Of a stretch of 64,000 nt of DNA, positions 30,189 to 37,136 are shown one piece after another. The DNA comes from Streptomyces sp. NBC_00461 (GTDB lineage: Bacteria; Actinomycetota; Actinomycetes; Streptomycetales; Streptomycetaceae): NCBI RefSeq assembly GCF_036013935.1, contig NZ_CP107902.1, positions 5,303,001 through 5,367,000 of the forward strand, given 5' to 3'. Under the pieces are notes generated by a model. The model did not search any database. It had not been told where the DNA came from and was given only the letters and a program-made list of their open reading frames with translations. The position numbers and the translations under genes are program-made. Each line of letters begins with the position of its first letter. Position 1 is the first letter of the stretch.

Positions 30189-30198
30189 CAAATTCTGG

Positions 30199-30269
30199 AG
30201 CGGGTGACGAGAATCGAACTCGCACTCTCAGCTTGGGAAGCTGATGTTCTACCACTAAACTACACCCGC
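30199..30269 (-). tRNA. tRNA-Gly(CCC)
   Basis: Folds as a 71-nt cloverleaf: acceptor gcgggtg/cacccgc, D-arm with agtggtagaac, anticodon stem tcagc/gctga around ttcccaa (anticodon CCC), T-arm gcgag-ttcgatt-ctcgt. CCA is genome-encoded at 30196-30198. Usual hot spot for integration; no duplicated 3' segment is visible in the window. Confidence 0.97.
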
Positions 30270-30388: not shown

Positions 30389-31414
30389 TCACCCGTTGTC
30401 GGTGGTGCCCGGCGGCGTCCCGGGCTGGATCGCCTTTGCCGCCGCCCGGGCGACCAGCACCACCCCTGTGACCGTGGCCACGGCGTACAGCGTTGCCAGC
30501 ACGGAGAGCAGGGCGATCTTCCAGACGTCCAGGTCGGAGAGCTTGTCGACCAGGTCGCCGAGCATCACGAGCACGATTCCCAGCAGGGTGGTCGCGATCA
30601 GGAACACGCCGAACACGACGATCATGTTGCTCGTGTTGGTGACTCGGTCCACGGCGGTCTGGGCGTCGGTCACGCGGTTCTTCATCTCCGCGTGGTTGGT
30701 CTCGACAGCGCGCCCCATGTCCTCGATCTCGCGGTCGACCTTTTGGCGCTGAATGTCGATTTCGGCGCGCAGGTCCTTGACGTTGCGGAAGTAGGAGAGC
30801 CCGCCGTCCTCCCCGTGCTCGCCCGCCCCGAACAGGGTGCTCAAGTAGTCGAATCCCACGTTGGCCACGGGATTCTCGGGCGCCCGCTCAATGTCGAAGA
30901 ACTGCAGATAGGCGATCGCATCGCCCTTCCGCATGGTGATGTTCTTCGGGCCGACATTTGCCACGATGAAATAGAGGCGCTCGTTGGTCTTCAGTCGCCA
31001 GCCATCGTGTTCTGGGTCCAATTCACGCCCGTAGCCCGGGTGAACCGTCGAGCCGTGCAGGACGAGGAGTCCCTTGGCGGCGAGGCCGAACCTGTCGCCG
31101 ATGGTCGCTGTGACGTCGAAGTCGAACGAGAACTTCTCGATCGTGGATATCAGCGCGGTGTCGCCCGGAGCCAGGGTGAACTCGGGCATCACCTGGTCGC
31201 CCTTGATTGCCGTGTACCTGGCTTCCCCGGGATTGTCCGGAATTACCAGCAGGTCGTCACCGAGTCGAACCGAGTAGCCTGCGCCCAGCAACTGTTCGGG
31301 CTTCCATGACCCCGACCGGAAGATGCGTTCGGAGGTCTGAAGCTCTGTGAGTAGATCTTGTGGGGAGAGGAGGCAGCCTGGACGGTGCGGACGCCGATCG
31401 CTTTCAGCAACCAT
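30389..31414 (-). CDS. Membrane-anchored dCTP-deaminase/dUTPase-like protein
   Basis: 341 residues. Residues 15-200 resemble the trimeric dCTP deaminase/dUTPase fold: LLGAGYSVRLGDD, LAPGDTALIST, GLLVLHGSTVHPGYG, MRKGDAIAYLQFF. The catalytic Glu of Dcd (in TLELSN) aligns with hydrophobic IVAN, and the RSSLAR motif is altered to DRFGLAAK, so it may bind but not deaminate nucleotides. A coiled coil (about 213-260) leads to two membrane helices (264-286, 298-324) and a short cytoplasmic tail. ATG 31414 has GAAGG upstream. It reads toward tRNA-Gly and is divergent from the nucleotidyltransferase gene. It could be a membrane-tethered nucleotide sensor or effector of the adjacent gene set. Confidence 0.75.
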   Translation of the reverse strand: MVAESDRRPHRPGCLLSPQDLLTELQTSERIFRSGSWKPEQLLGAGYSVRLGDDLLVIPDNPGEARYTAIKGDQVMPEFTLAPGDTALISTIEKFSFDFDVTATIGDRFGLAAKGLLVLHGSTVHPGYGRELDPEHDGWRLKTNERLYFIVANVGPKNITMRKGDAIAYLQFFDIERAPENPVANVGFDYLSTLFGAGEHGEDGGLSYFRNVKDLRAEIDIQRQKVDREIEDMGRAVETNHAEMKNRVTDAQTAVDRVTNTSNMIVVFGVFLIATTLLGIVLVMLGDLVDKLSDLDVWKIALLSVLATLYAVATVTGVVLVARAAAKAIQPGTPPGTTDNG

Positions 31415-31699
31415 TACCTGACCTTCTCTGGTGGTCCGGAGCGGAGCCAACCTTACGGTGAACTCGCTTGCCACGGAAGGAGTTTGCGGCGCTTTGCCTG
31501 ACCATGCGGGTCAGGGCGGACCGAGGCAACGGGCCGTGCGGGCATGCCGCACCCTCACAGGGAGGCACCACGGTAAGATGCGCGACTACCATTGAGGCGT
31601 TACCGCGGAGTCGGAGGGGGTAGGGTGACCTCGAGATTCGACAAGAATGCGTGATTAACGAGCCTTCCCCCAGACAGATCCCGATGAGGCCAAGAGGAA

Positions 31700-32338
31700 A
31701 TGACGAGCAGGTCAGTAAAAGCCCAATGGGTCAATGGCTTGATTCGCGAGGATCCCATGTTCGGTAAAGACCTATTCGCAGACGAATCCCACTTCGACTT
31801 GCGGTTCGTGGAGAATTACGAAAAAATCACGGAAATCGTCAAGGCGCTTCGCGTTCTGGGTATGCGGGTCGTGTTGACGAGTGGTTCTTTCGATATTATC
31901 CACGAGGGCCACTCGATGTATCTCGAGGCTGCCCGTAAATATGGCGAATTCCTTATCGTCGGGCTCGACAGCGATGAGAAGATCCGGCGGCGGAAGGGTC
32001 CCAACCGTCCGGCCGTACCAGAAATGGAACGGCTGCGGATGGTGACACATCAGCGCGGCGTGGGCCTCGTCACCCTGAAGCAGGTCGACCATCCCCGCTG
32101 GGCCCTCATCGACGCCGTCCGCCCCGATGTGCTGGTTGCCACGGCGGACACCTACACCGCCGAGGAGATCGCCGATCTTGAGGCGAAGTACTGCGTCCGC
32201 GTCGAGGTCCTCGACCGCATGGCGACCGTGAGCACCTCGGCCCGCCTGCGCCGCCTCCAACTGGGTCTCACCGAACAGGGCGACGACGAAGGCAGTGGTC
32301 AGAGGCCTGCAAACCCCTCACCCGGCAGCCCCGCGTAG
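31700..32338 (+). CDS. Cytidylyltransferase-like nucleotidyltransferase (HldE/RfaE C-domain type)
   Basis: 212 residues, HIGH-type nucleotidyltransferase fold: LTSGSFDIIHEGH (60-72) binds the triphosphate, RRRKGPNRPAVPEMERL and VSTSARLRRL (ISTTxLI-like) complete the site. Such enzymes join a nucleotide (CMP, AMP) to a phosphorylated small molecule with pyrophosphate release. ATG 31700 has AAGAGG very close; ATG 31757, with GAGG 5 bases before it, may be the real start (193 residues). First gene of a rightward pair with the deaminase (15-bp gap). Codon use is visibly more A/T-rich at the 5' end than in neighbours, suggesting acquisition. The 31415-31699 gap holds divergent promoters. Confidence 0.8.
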   Translation: MTSRSVKAQWVNGLIREDPMFGKDLFADESHFDLRFVENYEKITEIVKALRVLGMRVVLTSGSFDIIHEGHSMYLEAARKYGEFLIVGLDSDEKIRRRKGPNRPAVPEMERLRMVTHQRGVGLVTLKQVDHPRWALIDAVRPDVLVATADTYTAEEIADLEAKYCVRVEVLDRMATVSTSARLRRLQLGLTEQGDDEGSGQRPANPSPGSPA

Positions 32339-32353
32339 AGGTCCGGCACGCCA

Positions 32354-33241
32354 GTGAAGCAGACGATCCTGTACCTGCCGGTGGTGCACGCCGGCTACGA
32401 GGCATTCCTGAACCGGCATGCGGACTCCGACGAGATCCTGATTCTCGGCCGGGAGTTCAGCGAGGTCTTCCCGAAGCTCGCGAAGGACATCCGGAGCCTG
32501 AGCCCGGAGCGCGCGGCGCAGCATGCCCGCCTGATCGTTCCGGACACTCGTGTACGGGTGATCGAGCCGACTGATCTGGCCGGCGCCGTGGTCGCCGAAC
32601 TCGTCGTACTGCCCGACGAGGAAATGATGCACCGGCTCGTCGAGCTCCCGGCCTTCCCGGGCAAGGCCGAGCTTCGATTCGAGTCGACGTTCCTGCGCTG
32701 GGACCGCGACTGGAGCCGTGCGACGAAGCCCGCCCGATTCGACTACCGGATCTCACGGTCGAATCTGGACCGGCGGTTCATGACCCGGGCGGAGCGGGAG
32801 GCGCAGCGCAGTTCGGACTGGTGGCGGCAGGTGGGCGCGGTGGCCGCGCGCGACGGCCACGTCCTGCGGGCCGCTCACAACCACCACCACCCGACCGAGT
32901 ACACGCCGTACATCGACGGAGACCCGCGCAACGACTTCAGCAGAGGCGTCCGGCCGGATCTGTCCACCGCCATCCACGCGGAGGCATCCCTGGTGGCCCG
33001 CGCCGCACGGGACGGACTGAGCCTGGCGGGCTCCGACCTCTACGTCAGCACGTTCCCCTGTCCTGCCTGTGCACGGCTCGTGGTCGAGACGGGGTTCCAG
33101 AAGTGCTTCTTCGCCGGTCCGTACTCGATGCTGGACGGGGAGGAGATCCTGCGTGCGGGCGGCGTCGAGCTGATCTGGGTCGACATGACACCCGGGCATG
33201 GTGATGCTGCCGGCGCCGCTAGCGGCCCGGAGACGAACTGA
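32354..33241 (+). CDS. CMP/dCMP-deaminase-like zinc enzyme with an extra N-terminal domain
   Basis: 295 residues. From about 130 on it is a cytidine/deoxycytidylate deaminase fold: zinc ligands in HAE (208-210) and PCPAC (Cys236, Cys239), with the proton-shuttling Glu210. The first 125 residues (MKQTILYLPVVHAGYEAFLN onward) are not part of a standard deaminase and I do not recognise them. GTG 32354. It may deaminate a cytosine nucleotide; combined with the thymidylate-synthase-like gene across the way, it could supply the uridylate form. It converges with the HIT gene and overlaps its end by 23 bp. Confidence 0.82.
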   Translation: MKQTILYLPVVHAGYEAFLNRHADSDEILILGREFSEVFPKLAKDIRSLSPERAAQHARLIVPDTRVRVIEPTDLAGAVVAELVVLPDEEMMHRLVELPAFPGKAELRFESTFLRWDRDWSRATKPARFDYRISRSNLDRRFMTRAEREAQRSSDWWRQVGAVAARDGHVLRAAHNHHHPTEYTPYIDGDPRNDFSRGVRPDLSTAIHAEASLVARAARDGLSLAGSDLYVSTFPCPACARLVVETGFQKCFFAGPYSMLDGEEILRAGGVELIWVDMTPGHGDAAGAASGPETN

Positions 33242-33677
33242 ATCTCATCCGCACCGGGGTGAAGTCCTCATCGGCCGCGACCTCGCCCTCGCCGACGAGC
33301 ACATGCACGTGCAGATGCCTTATGGTCCCGCCCGTGTACCGGCAGTCGCCGTTGCGGGCGCCCAGGCCGTAGTGGTCCATGCCGTACTTCTCCTTCGTGT
33401 ACGCGAGGACTTCCCAGAAGTCGGCGCGGGCGTCGGAGGAGAGGTCGAGCAGATCGGTGACGTGCTCCTTGGGGATGAGCAGAAGATGCAACCGGGTCCC
33501 GGCATACGGGAATTCATTGGGCGTGACCATCCAGTGGGCGGTCTCCCTCAGGATCTGCTGTTTCTCATGGCTGCGGATGACGTCCGGGCAGAAGAGACAG
33601 ATGCCCTCTCCGTCCAGCCGCTCCATCTCCGCCCGTTGCTCTTCGGTCCGGCAATTGCCGAAGTAGTACAGGGTCAC
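33219..33677 (-). CDS. HIT-family (histidine triad) nucleotide hydrolase/transferase
   Basis: 152 residues. The catalytic triad motif is HLHVHVL (121-127), preceded by a Zn-type cysteine pair CLFC (27-30). HIT proteins cleave or transfer nucleoside monophosphates from phosphoanhydrides, phosphoramidates or nucleotidylated intermediates. GTG 33677 overlaps the DHFR stop (GTGA), so it is the third, translationally coupled gene of thyA-like/folA-like/HIT. The frame upstream to 33773 belongs to the DHFR gene. Its role with a nucleotidyltransferase nearby suggests turnover of a nucleotidylated compound. Confidence 0.87.
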   Translation of the reverse strand: MTLYYFGNCRTEEQRAEMERLDGEGICLFCPDVIRSHEKQQILRETAHWMVTPNEFPYAGTRLHLLLIPKEHVTDLLDLSSDARADFWEVLAYTKEKYGMDHYGLGARNGDCRYTGGTIRHLHVHVLVGEGEVAADEDFTPVRMRFSSSPGR

Positions 33678-34192
33678 ACGGGCACCCTTTCGAAACGCAG
33701 GAACGAGTGGGGCCACGTCGTTGCCCCGGCGGCGACGTCGACGCGCGACGTCGGTGCGAAGCCCTCCAGCCACCCCGACGGCATCCGGGAATCGCCTTCC
33801 ACCTGCGCGTGCACACGCGTCAGATAGATCCTGTCGATGCTGGGAAGCGCCTGCTGGTAGACGGAGGCCCCGCCGATCACGAAGACCTCGTCGTCTCCGG
33901 ACGCCTGCTCCAGCTCCTCCGCCCTGGCCAGGGCGGACGTGACCGAGGACTGCCAGTGGACGTCCGCCGAGGCCGGGCGCGGGGTCGCGCTCACCACCAC
34001 GCTGGTGCGGCCGGGAAGAGGCCGACCCAGGCGCGCGACGATCGACTCATGCGTGAGACGTCCGAGTACCACCGCATGCCCCCGGGTGACTTCCTTGAAG
34101 TACCGCAGATCTCCCGGTATGTGCCACGGCAGATCTCCGTCCTGACCGATGACGTCGTTCTCCGAGGCGGCGACGATCAAGGACTTTCTCAT
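33674..34192 (-). CDS. folA: Dihydrofolate reductase
   Basis: 172 residues. LIVAASENDVIGQDGDLPWH holds the Met20-like loop, IPGDLRYFKEVT carries the catalytic Asp, GRLTHESI stands for GRKTYESI, and VFVIGGASVYQQAL is the NADPH-binding GG motif. It reduces the dihydrofolate that thymidylate synthase makes. ATG 34192 overlaps the stop of the thymidylate-synthase gene by 4 bp, giving fixed stoichiometry with it. Probably dedicated to this operon rather than the cell's main folate supply. Confidence 0.92.
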   Translation of the reverse strand: MRKSLIVAASENDVIGQDGDLPWHIPGDLRYFKEVTRGHAVVLGRLTHESIVARLGRPLPGRTSVVVSATPRPASADVHWQSSVTSALARAEELEQASGDDEVFVIGGASVYQQALPSIDRIYLTRVHAQVEGDSRMPSGWLEGFAPTSRVDVAAGATTWPHSFLRFERVPV

Positions 34193-35085
34193 GTCGCCAC
34201 CGGAATGGAACCGATGGCCGGATGCGGGTCGTAGTCCGACAGGTCGAAATGCTCACCGCGGAAGTCATGGATATCGGTCACCCGGCGTCCGCTTTCGTTG
34301 AGCGTCACCGTCGGCAACCGTCGCGGTTCCCGGTCCAGCATGGCCTTCACGCTGTCGACCTGGTCCTCGTAGACATGGGCGTCCGAAATGGTGTGGTAGT
34401 AGCGCGCGGCGGGAATGCCCGTGAGGTGTTCGAGCATCAACAGCAGGGCCGCGTACTGAATCATGTTGGACGGGACACCGACGGGAACGTCCCCGGAGCG
34501 CTGGAACATGTGCAGATGGAGTTGGCCGGCGAGGACCCTGACATGGACCCAGCCGTGACACGGGGAAATGGTCGTCTGCGGAATCTTCCCCGCCCCGCGG
34601 ATCTGGTACTGCGGAATCCACGGACTGACGAAGTGAGTACGGTCGTTCGGAAGCTCCGTCAGCTGCTCCACCAGGTGCTTGAACTGGTCGAAGCCCTCGC
34701 CTTCCACGGTCGGGAAATCGTGGAACGCCCCACCGTACGAGCCCGGCCCCAGATCGCCCGGCGGCAGACCGCGGCGCGACGTCTTCGCGTCACTGGCCCA
34801 CGGCCCCCACCAGTCGCACCCGAACTCGGCCAGTTCATCGAGGGTTGTCGCCCCGTTGATGAATGCGCAGAGTTCTCCGATGGGTTTGCGCCAGAACCTG
34901 GAGATGCTTCTGTCGGTGATGATCGGAAACCCATTTGCCAATTCGAAGCTCATGGTCTGCTGCATAAGGGTCAGAGCATCGGGGCCTTGTCGCGTGGGTG
35001 ACGTGAGGCCGTGTTCCAGGATGGCACCCAGGATCGTACGATATTGCGAATCCGGTGCACGGTCCGCATACGCGACATACTTCAC
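34189..35085 (-). CDS. Thymidylate synthase-like enzyme (ThyA fold), divergent
   Basis: 298 residues. It keeps the nucleophile Cys176 (ISPCHGWVH), the phosphate-binding QRSGD (195-199), Asn207 in GVPSNMIQYA, and HVY (237-239). It departs from housekeeping ThyA elsewhere: LGPGSYGGAFHDF instead of LGPVYGKQWR, RTHFVSPWIPQ instead of SRRxIVSAWN, SN instead of FN, and HVRV instead of FFQFYV after the active Cys. The fold methylates or hydroxymethylates C5 of a pyrimidine nucleotide with methylene-tetrahydrofolate. Substrate may be dUMP or another pyrimidine nucleotide. GTG 35085 has a GAAGGGA-type RBS; heads the operon with DHFR and HIT. Confidence 0.85.
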   Translation of the reverse strand: MKYVAYADRAPDSQYRTILGAILEHGLTSPTRQGPDALTLMQQTMSFELANGFPIITDRSISRFWRKPIGELCAFINGATTLDELAEFGCDWWGPWASDAKTSRRGLPPGDLGPGSYGGAFHDFPTVEGEGFDQFKHLVEQLTELPNDRTHFVSPWIPQYQIRGAGKIPQTTISPCHGWVHVRVLAGQLHLHMFQRSGDVPVGVPSNMIQYAALLLMLEHLTGIPAARYYHTISDAHVYEDQVDSVKAMLDREPRRLPTVTLNESGRRVTDIHDFRGEHFDLSDYDPHPAIGSIPVAT

Positions 35086-35231
35086 GAGGTTCCCTTCACT
35101 TGGCCCGGTTCCATTCTCTGCGCCAGGGCTAGGTCATGCTAGCAGCCGCCGTGCTTACCGACTCTCCGCACGGGTATTTTCCTCGTCATCCCAAAGGTCA
35201 ACCCGAGGTCATTCCAAAGGCATGCGAAGAC

Positions 35232-36017
35232 CTACATGAGATCCTTGATGCTTACACTCAGGGCGGAGGCGATCTCCTGCAGATAAGTCAGGCTGAGGTT
35301 GTTCACCCTGTCGCTGTTCTGCTCCCAGTCCCTGAGCTGATCAGCGCTGAAGGCATCCGGGATCCTGGTGGATTCCGCAACCTGTCGACGGGTCATGTTC
35401 CGCAGCTCGCGCAACTCCTTGATGCGGGCGCCCACTCGATGTTGTTCGAGGTCCGCAAGGGCAAGCCTGCGCTGCAGCAATTTGGGTCGCAATTCAGCGA
35501 TCTCCAGATTCAGCTGCTCATCCAGCCGCGAAATCGAGTCGTACCGTACAAGGGCGAGGGGTCCCGGGATTCCGGTCACCATGCGACTGATCCTGGTGTC
35601 GATATGTGCGACCACCACAATCGGGATGATGGCTTCCTGGGCGAAAACGAGTTCCTGCCCCGCCCCCGTGCTCGGATGGTGCGCGAGATAAATGAGAAAG
35701 TCGGAGTTGATGACCCGGTGGCGGTCCGTCCTGAAGACTTCCACGTCCGGCACGGTGGTGTGGTGGACCGGGTCCGTGACTTTTCTGGGCTCATAGAGCC
35801 GAACGTTGTTGTGTGCGCAGACGTCGGCCACCGTGTCGGAAATCTCGAACAGGTACTTGCGCTCGTCGGCGTCCAGTCCGGTCAGGGCGGACGCCAGGTA
35901 GGCGTCGAGGTGACTGTGCGGGGCCTGGGGAGTCTGGACGCTCGGCTCTCGCGCCGCCGAGGACAGGCGGTCGGGAAGGGTCATCGCTCGAATTCCGTCC
36001 TGCCGTCCAGATGCCAT
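35232..36017 (-). CDS. Nucleoside 2-deoxyribosyltransferase-like domain fused to XRE helix-turn-helix
   Basis: 261 residues. Residues 36-165 form a Rossmann-like nucleoside deoxyribosyltransferase domain: AYLASALTGLDADERK at the start and STGAGQELVFA with the candidate nucleophile Glu122. A helical linker (LDEQLNLEIAELRPKLLQRR) leads to an XRE-type HTH at about 185-245 (MTRRQVAESTRIPDAFSADQ). ATG 36017 follows GGGAG by 5 bases. It may cleave or sense a (deoxy)nucleotide and regulate the adjacent operon, 146 bp downstream on the same strand. The fusion of a nucleotide-processing domain to a DNA-binding domain is the oddest gene of the set. Confidence 0.8.
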   Translation of the reverse strand: MASGRQDGIRAMTLPDRLSSAAREPSVQTPQAPHSHLDAYLASALTGLDADERKYLFEISDTVADVCAHNNVRLYEPRKVTDPVHHTTVPDVEVFRTDRHRVINSDFLIYLAHHPSTGAGQELVFAQEAIIPIVVVAHIDTRISRMVTGIPGPLALVRYDSISRLDEQLNLEIAELRPKLLQRRLALADLEQHRVGARIKELRELRNMTRRQVAESTRIPDAFSADQLRDWEQNSDRVNNLSLTYLQEIASALSVSIKDLM

Positions 36018-36626: not shown

Positions 36627-37136
36627 ATGACCGGTGTGCGGGAGAACCTGACCTACGAGGCGTTCGGCGTCGCCGTACGCGAGCTCGCGCAGGCCGTCGC
36701 CGACGACGGGTTCGAGCCGGATGTCGTGCTGAGCATCGCGCGCGGGGGCGTCTTCGTCGCCGGCGGGCTCGCCTACGCCCTCGACTGCAAGAACATCCAC
36801 CTTGTGAACGTGGAGTTCTACACGGGCGTGGGGACCACCCTGGAGATGCCCGTCATGCTCGCCCCCGTCCCCAACGTCATCGACTTCTCCGACAAGAAGG
36901 TACTGATCACCGACGACGTCGCAGACACCGGCAAGACGCTGAAGCTCGTACGCGACTTCTGCCTCGACACCGTCGCCGAGGTCCGCTCCGCCGTCATCTA
37001 CGAGAAGTCGCAGTCCCTGGTGAAGTGCGAGTACGTGTGGAAGCGGACCGACGACTGGATCAACTTTCCGTGGAGTGTTCTGCCCGTAGTGCGTAAGTCG
37101 GGGCAGCCGGTCACTCCGTCGAGAGAAGCACTCTGA
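36627..37136 (+). CDS. Purine-type phosphoribosyltransferase
   Basis: 169 residues, type I PRTase. The PRPP-binding motif VLITDDVADTGKTL is near the middle; the flexible-loop region and SIARGGVFVAGGLAY (early PRPP loop) are present. It transfers phosphoribosyl from PRPP to a purine base (hypoxanthine/xanthine/guanine type likely) in salvage. ATG 36627; earlier in-frame starts extend into unrelated sequence. It fits the nucleotide theme of the genes to its left, but it is a widespread Streptomyces gene and may belong to the core chromosome. Confidence 0.87.
   Translation: MTGVRENLTYEAFGVAVRELAQAVADDGFEPDVVLSIARGGVFVAGGLAYALDCKNIHLVNVEFYTGVGTTLEMPVMLAPVPNVIDFSDKKVLITDDVADTGKTLKLVRDFCLDTVAEVRSAVIYEKSQSLVKCEYVWKRTDDWINFPWSVLPVVRKSGQPVTPSREAL

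What the first reader, a model, noticed from the sequence alone, without database searches (positions are those of the whole stretch)
30389..36017. Compact nucleotide-modification gene set beside tRNA-Gly, possibly an undescribed pathway or defence system
Seen: seven adjacent genes encode a membrane-anchored Dcd/dUTPase-like protein, a HIGH-type nucleotidyltransferase, a zinc CMP/dCMP-type deaminase, a HIT protein, DHFR, a divergent thymidylate synthase and a deoxyribosyltransferase-XRE fusion. The ThyA-like, DHFR and HIT genes overlap by 4 bp each. Known: ThyA-type enzymes alkylate C5 of pyrimidine nucleotides and leave dihydrofolate for DHFR; MilA (ThyA fold) with MilB (deoxyribosyltransferase fold) hydroxymethylate CMP and release the base in mildiomycin synthesis. 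Inference: the locus makes a modified pyrimidine nucleotide or its base, conjugates it (nucleotidyltransferase), and turns it over or senses it (HIT, Dcd-like), either as a small metabolite, a signalling molecule or an anti-phage nucleotide-depletion device.
Basis: partly seen in the sequence, partly recalled or inferred. Interest (0 to 1): 0.9.

Follow-up and report, generated by a model that had tools for sequence, protein, structure and literature searches.

The report
Cassette replacing normal thymidylate-synthesis genes
Next to a tRNA gene in a Streptomyces chromosome lies a gene set, kept together from Actinobacteria to tiny Patescibacteria, that seems to make the DNA letter T by an undescribed route using two enzymes that have no place in the textbook pathway.

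Summary
In detail: seven genes (A-G) lie at 30389-35984. Four of them, nucleotidyltransferase B, deaminase C, HIT protein D and ThyA-like F (usually with DHFR E), form a cassette shared by Actinobacteria and Patescibacteria. All four are in 31 of 31 loci whose contig reaches far enough. In 379 Patescibacteria genomes, 21 hold C, and all 21 hold B, D and a ThyA beside it; in three, DHFR and D are one fused protein.

This does not look like defence. Twelve of 30 cassette genomes, and 20 of the 21 Patescibacteria, have no detectable ThyX, so the cassette ThyA is their only clear thymidylate synthase. In the one cassette-free Streptomyces examined, the same site, between tRNA-Gly(CCC) and a phosphoribosyltransferase gene, holds dcd (dCTP deaminase). 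In the window the cassette sits there instead; S. phyllanthi keeps only a broken dcd remnant. I read it as an alternative dCTP-to-dTMP pathway.

B and D have no role in the known pathway. My mechanism, inferred and untested: B couples dCMP to a phosphorylated carrier, C deaminates it, F methylates it, D releases dTMP. The remodelled 5'-phosphate site of F fits but does not prove this. A and G are accessory.

The parts
30196..30269 (-). tRNA-Gly(CCC), edge of the site; the same tRNA borders dcd in cassette-free Streptomyces G196
   Evidence: ARAGORN; same tRNA within about 200 bp of the cassette in L029, L030, L031, L033, L036, L039, L047, L054
30389..31474 (-). A: degenerate dCTP-deaminase-like domain plus coiled region and membrane segments (read by eye); accessory, perhaps a sensor
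   Evidence: PF22769 34.2 bits; below the TIGR02274 cut-off (31.3 vs 92.8); the Glu of Dcd's TLELSN is I or V in all 8 rows
31700..32338 (+). B: HIGH-type nucleotidyltransferase (HldC / CTP:phosphocholine cytidylyltransferase fold)
   Evidence: PF01467; PDB sequence matches; AF2 model pLDDT 79 and Foldseek; HxGH and STS motifs conserved
32354..33241 (+). C: zinc dCMP-type deaminase with a conserved N-terminal domain of about 130 aa without a family match
   Evidence: PF00383; zinc ligands H208, E210, C236, C239 kept; AF2 (pLDDT 72) and Foldseek match dCMP deaminases
33219..33677 (-). D: HIT-superfamily protein, C59/C62 and HxHx(H/Q) (numbered on the 33219-33773 ORF)
   Evidence: PF01230; conserved residues; start at GTG; fused to DHFR in three Patescibacteria
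33674..34192 (-). E: dihydrofolate reductase, the only PF00186 match in the genome
34189..35085 (-). F: ThyA-type enzyme of a distinct subfamily, the only PF00303 match in the genome
35232..35984 (-). G: deoxyribosyltransferase-like domain plus XRE helix-turn-helix, probable regulator of the cassette
36627..37136 (+). phosphoribosyltransferase gene that marks the other edge of the site; not part of the cassette
   Evidence: PF00156; follows dcd in G196

Best explanation
The locus is an alternative de novo thymidylate pathway that in this Streptomyces occupies the site of the usual dCTP deaminase gene (dcd), and in many organisms it also stands in for ThyX. SHOWN: B, C, D and F (mostly with E) are a conserved unit; their catalytic residues are intact; F is the only clear thymidylate synthase detected in many carriers; dcd is missing or broken at the site. 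INFERRED: the unit converts dCTP to dTMP. MOST LIKELY MECHANISM (inferred): B transfers dCMP from dCTP to a small phosphorylated carrier X-P, giving dCDP-X; C deaminates it to dUDP-X; F methylates it to dTDP-X with methylene-tetrahydrofolate; E recycles dihydrofolate; D, a HIT nucleotidyl hydrolase or transferase, releases dTMP and X-P. Free dUMP and dUTP would then never build up. A variant puts D before F, so that F uses free dUMP. A and G would sense nucleotides and control the unit.
For: (1) Linkage: B, C, D, F in 31 of 31 loci whose contig reaches far enough, a DHFR-like gene in 29 of 31, with several gene orders. All 21 Patescibacteria with C have B, D and ThyA with it; DHFR and D are fused in L144, L152 and L199. 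Conventional ThyA loci: no B, no D and no full-length C in 2 of 2 fetched Patescibacteria and 18 of 18 fetched Streptomyces loci. (2) Context: tmk, dUTPase and DHFR-like genes beside the unit in L059 and L060, a Tmk-ThyX-ThyX fusion in L058; a tmk or dUTPase relative in 10 of 20 further Patescibacteria stretches. (3) Replacement: no ThyX found in 12 of 30 and in 20 of 21 cassette genomes, while ThyX is over cut-off in 231 of 246 Streptomyces. (4) Site: tRNA-Gly - dcd - phosphoribosyltransferase in cassette-free G196; cassette instead of dcd in the window; frameshifted dcd remnant (about the first 76 of 191 residues) in S. phyllanthi L035. (5) F keeps C146, N177, R166, S167, D169, H207, E58, W80, but T22 is Q in 47 of 50 and R127 is T in 49 of 52 aligned cassette rows, against T and R in 20 of 20 conventional rows. 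The two cassette ThyAs nearest the conventional kind (G958, G750) keep R127 but have P-Q for R21-T22.
Against: No biochemistry. One empty site in one genome was examined. 18 of 30 cassette genomes also have ThyX, and so has this genome, where ThyX carries an intein-like insert. A natural ThyA with R127 to Gly and K48 to Arg still makes dTMP from free dUMP with weaker binding (PMC6005164, passages), so those two changes do not prove a new substrate; R21 itself is kept in 32 of 50 cassette rows, the window's included. A viral-labelled contig, L077, has B and C without D, E or F in the 16.8 kb held. dUTPase genes still lie beside some units; 10 of 20 further Patescibacteria stretches show neither tmk nor dUTPase. 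Patescibacteria can scavenge nucleotides (recalled), and many of the genomes are drafts or MAGs.
Confidence: 0.55

Rival explanations
1. Ordinary thymidylate synthesis: C deaminates free dCMP, F methylates free dUMP, E recycles folate. B and D do something auxiliary (nucleotide housekeeping, a regulatory dinucleotide, cofactor supply) and are only co-regulated.
For: C, F and E alone suffice for dCMP to dTMP; C matches dCMP deaminases in sequence and fold; a natural ThyA with the R127 and K48 changes still works on dUMP (PMC6005164).
Against: B and D are present in all 31 adequate loci and in 21 of 21 Patescibacteria units, as strictly as C and F, while DHFR is missing beside some; D is fused to DHFR three times; the R21-T22 loop is remodelled even in the two most conventional cassette ThyAs.
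Confidence: 0.3
2. The set makes a modified pyrimidine (for DNA hypermodification or as a small metabolite); dTMP comes from elsewhere.
For: ThyA-fold enzymes can hydroxymethylate (recalled: MilA, phage hydroxymethylases); this genome also has ThyX; the ThyA subfamily is distinct.
Against: F is the only clear thymidylate synthase detected in 12 of 30 and 20 of 21 carriers; the Patescibacteria context is dTTP synthesis where it can be read. In the neighbour clustering no further gene was seen to recur as widely as the core; clusters shared by 3 to 7 loci were not all identified.
Confidence: 0.1
3. Anti-phage nucleotide-depletion system.
For: C is distantly like the anti-phage dCTP deaminase (NF041025, 60.5 bits of a 400 cut-off); D is weakly like ThsC2; distribution in the window's phylum is sporadic (2 of 396 genomes with full-length C, the window's own included).
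Against: NCBIfam match far below its cut-off, PADLOC matches short or weak; housekeeping-type neighbours; F and E would build thymidylate rather than deplete it; the unit stands in the dcd site and in genomes without detected ThyX.
Confidence: 0.03

Closest known systems
ThyA-type thymidylate synthase plus FolA (PF00303 / PF00186)
   Same: Fold, catalytic residues, uracil-recognising Asn177, DHFR partner gene
   Different: Separate group in a quick tree (SH-aLRT 100); R127T, K48R, RTGTGT loop replaced, 7-residue longer RGxGK loop before PCH in the window and most rows shown; B-C-D neighbours
Dcd (dCTP deaminase, in some bacteria bifunctional Dcd:Dut; PMC5519681, start of abstract in the search listing) plus ThyX
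   Same: Same metabolic place, from cytosine deoxynucleotide to dTMP (inferred); the same chromosomal site as dcd in Streptomyces
   Different: Unrelated enzymes; comes with a nucleotidyltransferase and a HIT protein
dCMP deaminase / ThyA / DHFR route of phages and Gram-positives (recalled)
   Same: Catalytic domain of C, and F and E
   Different: C has an extra conserved N-terminal domain; B and D present
HldC and CTP:glycerol-3-phosphate / phosphocholine / phosphoethanolamine cytidylyltransferases
   Same: Fold and HxGH, ST-S motifs of B
   Different: Below the HldE-domain cut-off (99.3 vs 181.5 bits); acceptor and nucleotide unknown
MilA/MilB of mildiomycin synthesis (recalled)
   Same: ThyA-fold and deoxyribosyltransferase-like proteins in one locus
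   Different: G is fused to XRE and found in only 7 of 34 loci; not compared by sequence

Membership tests
ThyA thymidylate synthase | Match over the curated cut-off | tested here: met
   PF00303 212.4 bits vs 24.3; TIGR03284 162.3 vs 108.35
ThyA thymidylate synthase | Catalytic and base-recognising residues (C146, N177, H207, E58, W80) | tested here: met
   (C146 52/52, N177 53/53, H207 53/53, E58 51/51, W80 51/51 aligned rows)
ThyA thymidylate synthase | Four phosphate-binding arginines (R21, R126, R127, R166) | tested here: not met
   R127 is T in 49/52, R21 kept in 32/50, R126 47/52, R166 53/53; the window protein lacks R127 only. An active natural exception exists.
ThyA thymidylate synthase | Turns dUMP into dTMP | not testable with these tools
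   no assay; only clear synthase detected in many carriers
Anti-phage dCTP deaminase (NF041025 / PADLOC dCTPase) | Full-length match over the curated cut-off | tested here: not met
   60.5 of 400 bits, residues 205-267 only; PADLOC 57.4 bits, residues 204-271 only, no cut-off given
dCTP deaminase Dcd (protein A) | TIGR02274 cut-off and catalytic Glu | tested here: not met
   31.3 of 92.8 bits; Glu replaced in 8 of 8 rows (catalytic role of this Glu recalled)
HldE/HldC heptose-phosphate nucleotidyltransferase (protein B) | TIGR02199 cut-off | tested here: not met
   99.3 of 181.5 bits
HIT superfamily (protein D) | PF01230 cut-off and HxHx(H/Q) motif | tested here: met
   38.0 vs 21.5 bits; H153 and H155 in every row (53 rows, of which L039 was a wrongly cut fragment)
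MilA/MilB hydroxymethyl-CMP pathway | CMP hydroxymethylase activity of the ThyA-fold protein | not tested
   no sequence comparison with MilA made

The most novel reading that the evidence does not exclude
Carrier-tethered thymidylate synthesis: cytosine deoxynucleotide is loaded on a small phosphate carrier by a nucleotidyltransferase, deaminated and methylated while attached, and released as dTMP by a HIT enzyme, so that a cell makes T without free dUMP or dUTP.
Probability: 0.35. Interest if true: 0.92.

Novelty: new variant of a known kind. Interest (0 to 1): 0.78.

Why it matters
Thymidylate synthesis is essential and is taught as complete with ThyA or ThyX fed by Dcd, Dut or dCMP deaminase. 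Here is a cross-phylum cassette that sits in place of those genes and brings two enzymes with no known role in the pathway. If the reading holds, it adds a new way to make a DNA precursor, explains how many Patescibacteria and some actinomycetes make T, and offers direct tests. Six searches for it in print (open-licence PubMed Central papers only; only the first 12 and 20 titles and abstract starts were seen) showed no description.

Tried and rejected
Defence reading: the NCBIfam match is far below its cut-off and PADLOC matches are short or weak. Phage origin: phage ThyA matches are all under 60% identity (30-33% in the 20 rows listed) and no phage record covers 80% of C; one IMG/VR contig (L077) holds B and C. 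A shared origin of the N-terminal domain of C with B (H-x-G-Y against H-x-G-H) was tested by profile comparison and not supported (probability 3%). The first genome-contig scan, with G, found nothing. Neighbour clustering for further partners showed the core and its antisense frames in most loci; clusters in 3 to 7 loci were not all identified. The extra PF00303 matches in G638, G643 and G981 are short or weak. Altered-substrate evidence from R127 and K48 alone was downgraded after reading passages of PMC6005164.
Full report
WHAT IS THERE. The window is part of a complete 10.37 Mb Streptomyces-type chromosome (the genus is inferred from named relatives). Genes at 30389-35984: A degenerate DCD-like protein with membrane segments read by eye (-), B nucleotidyltransferase (+), C deaminase (+), D HIT (-), E DHFR (-), F ThyA-like (-), G deoxyribosyltransferase-like/XRE (-). 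E and F are the only PF00186 and PF00303 matches in the genome; ThyX lies elsewhere.

THE CORE TRAVELS. A pattern-based scan of one genome for each of 84,980 species with a deaminase profile gave 34 loci. In three (L056, L057, L062) the contig ends inside or before a core gene, and a fourth, L038, begins inside B. In the 31 loci other than L056, L057 and L062, B, C, D and F are all present (31 of 31), and a DHFR-like gene in 29 of 31, missing beside L037 and L061. Orders vary: B-C then D-E-F convergent (most), F-B-C-D (L037), D-E-F then B-C (L036, L039, L047). A and G are each in 7 of the 34. Hosts: Streptomyces, Trebonia, Thermomonospora, Actinocorallia, Planosporangium, Spirilliplanes, Actinokineospora, Klenkia, several MAGs, and four Patescibacteria (Saccharibacteria counted here). 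In the phylum sample of the window the full-length deaminase is rare: 2 of 396 genomes, the window's own included; 12 further matches cover only the catalytic part. In the protein database 1,220 proteins match C at E <= 0.001 (only the 7,999 candidates sharing most words were scored) and 3,625 match the F profile at E <= 1e-80.

CONTROLLED TEST IN PATESCIBACTERIA (the phylum of G657, named from L058). The F profile found 27 matches at E <= 1e-60 in 379 genomes. Of the 19 with 235 bits or more, one is G657 (L058) and I fetched the other 18: 18 of 18 have B, C and D with F (D of L152 shows as a DHFR-HIT fusion). Of the eight lower-scoring genomes I fetched three: G880 and G905 have DHFR and no B, D or full-length C (G905 has a 36-bit match to the catalytic part of C nearby); G958 has the whole unit. 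The reciprocal search found C in 21 of 379: the 19, G958 and G1026; the ThyA of G1026 lies beside B and C. So 21 of 21 genomes with C have B, D and a ThyA with it. In L144, L152 and L199 DHFR and HIT form one open frame of 348, 316 and 338 codons. Conventional Streptomyces ThyA loci: 18 fetched of the 20 found outside G000 and G222; 0 of 18 have B, C or D, and 17 of 18 have DHFR.

A PHYLOGENETIC UNIT. In a quick tree of 73 rows the 21 conventional rows are split from the 52 cassette rows by a branch with SH-aLRT 100; the 32 actinobacterial rows are one group (97) nested among Patescibacteria rows. One genome is present twice (L064, L175); the rows of G750 (cut), G1035, G958 and G1026 were not in the tree; several rows are long, so finer branching is unsure.

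THYMIDYLATE CONTEXT. In L059 and L060 the unit is flanked by thymidylate kinase, dUTPase and a DHFR/RibD-like gene and by topA; in L058 by a 771-aa fusion of thymidylate kinase with two ThyX domains, among ribosomal-protein genes (the kinase of L060 by similarity; ribosomal and topA names read by eye). Of 20 further Patescibacteria stretches (L137-L154, L198, L199), 9 hold a dUTPase relative and 6 a thymidylate-kinase relative (one weak), 10 neither. Of 30 cassette genomes (30 of the 34 loci were given), ThyX is found in 18 and not in 12 (L032-L037, L039, L043, L047, L059-L061); the cassette ThyA is the only clear PF00303 match, with a short extra in G638 and a weak one in G643. Of 21 Patescibacteria carriers, 20 have no ThyX match; G981 has a weak second PF00303 match. 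In 246 Streptomyces genomes ThyX is over cut-off in 231; 14 have no match at all, and 13 of these 14 have a ThyA (12 conventional, one the cassette of G222). Some genomes are drafts, so absences are less firm there.

THE SITE. The unit borders tRNA-Gly(CCC) within about 200 bp in the window and in L029, L030, L031, L033, L036, L039, L047 and L054; in L032 and L035 the tRNA is 2 to 4 kb away; in the other scanned loci (Klenkia, Planosporangium, Trebonia, the Patescibacteria and others) no tRNA-Gly was found (L057, L061, L062 and most of L137-L154 not scanned). In cassette-free Streptomyces G196 the corresponding interval, tRNA-Gly to the phosphoribosyltransferase gene, in the dnaK region, holds a 191-aa dcd (TIGR02274, 212.7 bits); tblastn of A and F found nothing in the 400 kb taken. 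With that Dcd as query, no dcd was found in the window or in the held stretches of the cassette loci (55 loci searched), except in S. phyllanthi L035, where matches to residues 1-41 and 42-76 in two frames remain beside the phosphoribosyltransferase; in distant hosts this test is weak. So in Streptomyces the cassette sits where dCTP deaminase normally sits. Whether the genome keeps a dcd elsewhere was not tested.

ENZYMES. B: model pLDDT 79; best Foldseek matches are HldC and CTP-dependent choline/glycerol-phosphate transferases. C: dCMP-deaminase fold; zinc ligands kept; N-terminal domain with conserved P9, H12, G14, R47 and FLRW, model of medium confidence. D: C59, C62, H104, H153, H155 kept; third triad position H, Q or N in the rows shown (its L039 row was a wrongly cut fragment). 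F (53 cassette against 20 conventional rows; E. coli numbering on the sequence; residue roles from the table in PMC6005164, passages seen): catalytic and base contacts kept; T22 to Q 47 of 50, R127 to T 49 of 52, K48 to R 51 of 51, R21 kept in 32 of 50; conventional rows keep R21, T22, K48, R126, R127 in 20 of 20. G958 and G750, which are 40-47% identical to three conventional rows and 31-41% to five cassette rows, keep R127 but have P-Q for R21-T22 (49% to each other). Loss of the phosphate-lid motif even there is what makes me prefer a substrate with something on its 5' phosphate. Against this: an active natural ThyA with R127 and K48 changes is known, and the window's own F keeps R21.

MECHANISM. 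Shown: gene linkage, DHFR-HIT fusions, intact catalytic motifs, replacement pattern. Inferred from families: B transfers a nucleotidyl group to a phosphate, C deaminates a cytosine deoxynucleotide, F methylates a uracil deoxynucleotide, E recycles folate, D cleaves or transfers a nucleotidyl group. The simplest scheme that gives every gene a job is dCTP + X-P to dCDP-X to dUDP-X to dTDP-X to dTMP + X-P. It is a proposal; the carrier, the nucleotide of B and the place of D are unknown. I give 0.8 to 'thymidylate-pathway cassette' and about 0.35 to 'tethered'.

NOVELTY. Literature searches in open PubMed Central papers showed no description; for only the top of a longer list was seen; subscription papers and preprints were not covered. 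I saw passages of PMC6005164 and PMC5954106 and the start of the abstract of PMC5519681; the other papers were seen as listings only.

Noticed in passing
L028:6915-8171 (own genome C1 near 7.127 Mb): The genome's ThyX is one 418-aa frame split between RHRVGW and SYNEESGRY by an insert that begins CLPGD and ends HN: it looks like a mini-intein in the ThyX motif (recalled features). Several other Streptomyces (e.g. G028, G032, G108, G177, G201) have two weaker matches that may be the same; those were not read.
   Followed up: partly
L144:7642-8688, L152:8199-9149, L199:5499-6515: DHFR-HIT fusion proteins in three Patescibacteria cassettes.
   Followed up: partly
L147:4273-5727 and L150:3900-5522: Here B is the C-terminal part of a longer open frame (484 and 540 codons); the N-terminal part has no clear Pfam match.
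   Followed up: partly
L035:9446-9672: Broken remnant of dcd between tRNA-Gly and the phosphoribosyltransferase gene in S. phyllanthi, next to the cassette.
   Followed up: partly
L058:6993-9308: Saccharibacteria protein fusing thymidylate kinase with two ThyX domains, directly upstream of the cassette.
   Followed up: partly
L077:7261-8840: A 158-kb contig in the viral collection carries B and C of the cassette without D, E or F in the 16.8 kb held; origin of the contig not checked.
   Followed up: partly
window:35232-35984: G belongs to a wider family (198 proteins at E <= 0.001), many 330-350 aa with extra ends, with an invariant Glu in STGxGxEL in 28 aligned rows; contexts outside the cassette are unknown.
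   Followed up: no
Streptomyces sample: Conventional ThyA-DHFR pairs appear to have replaced ThyX in a number of Streptomyces: 13 of 14 genomes without any ThyX match carry a ThyA (one of them the cassette).
   Followed up: partly
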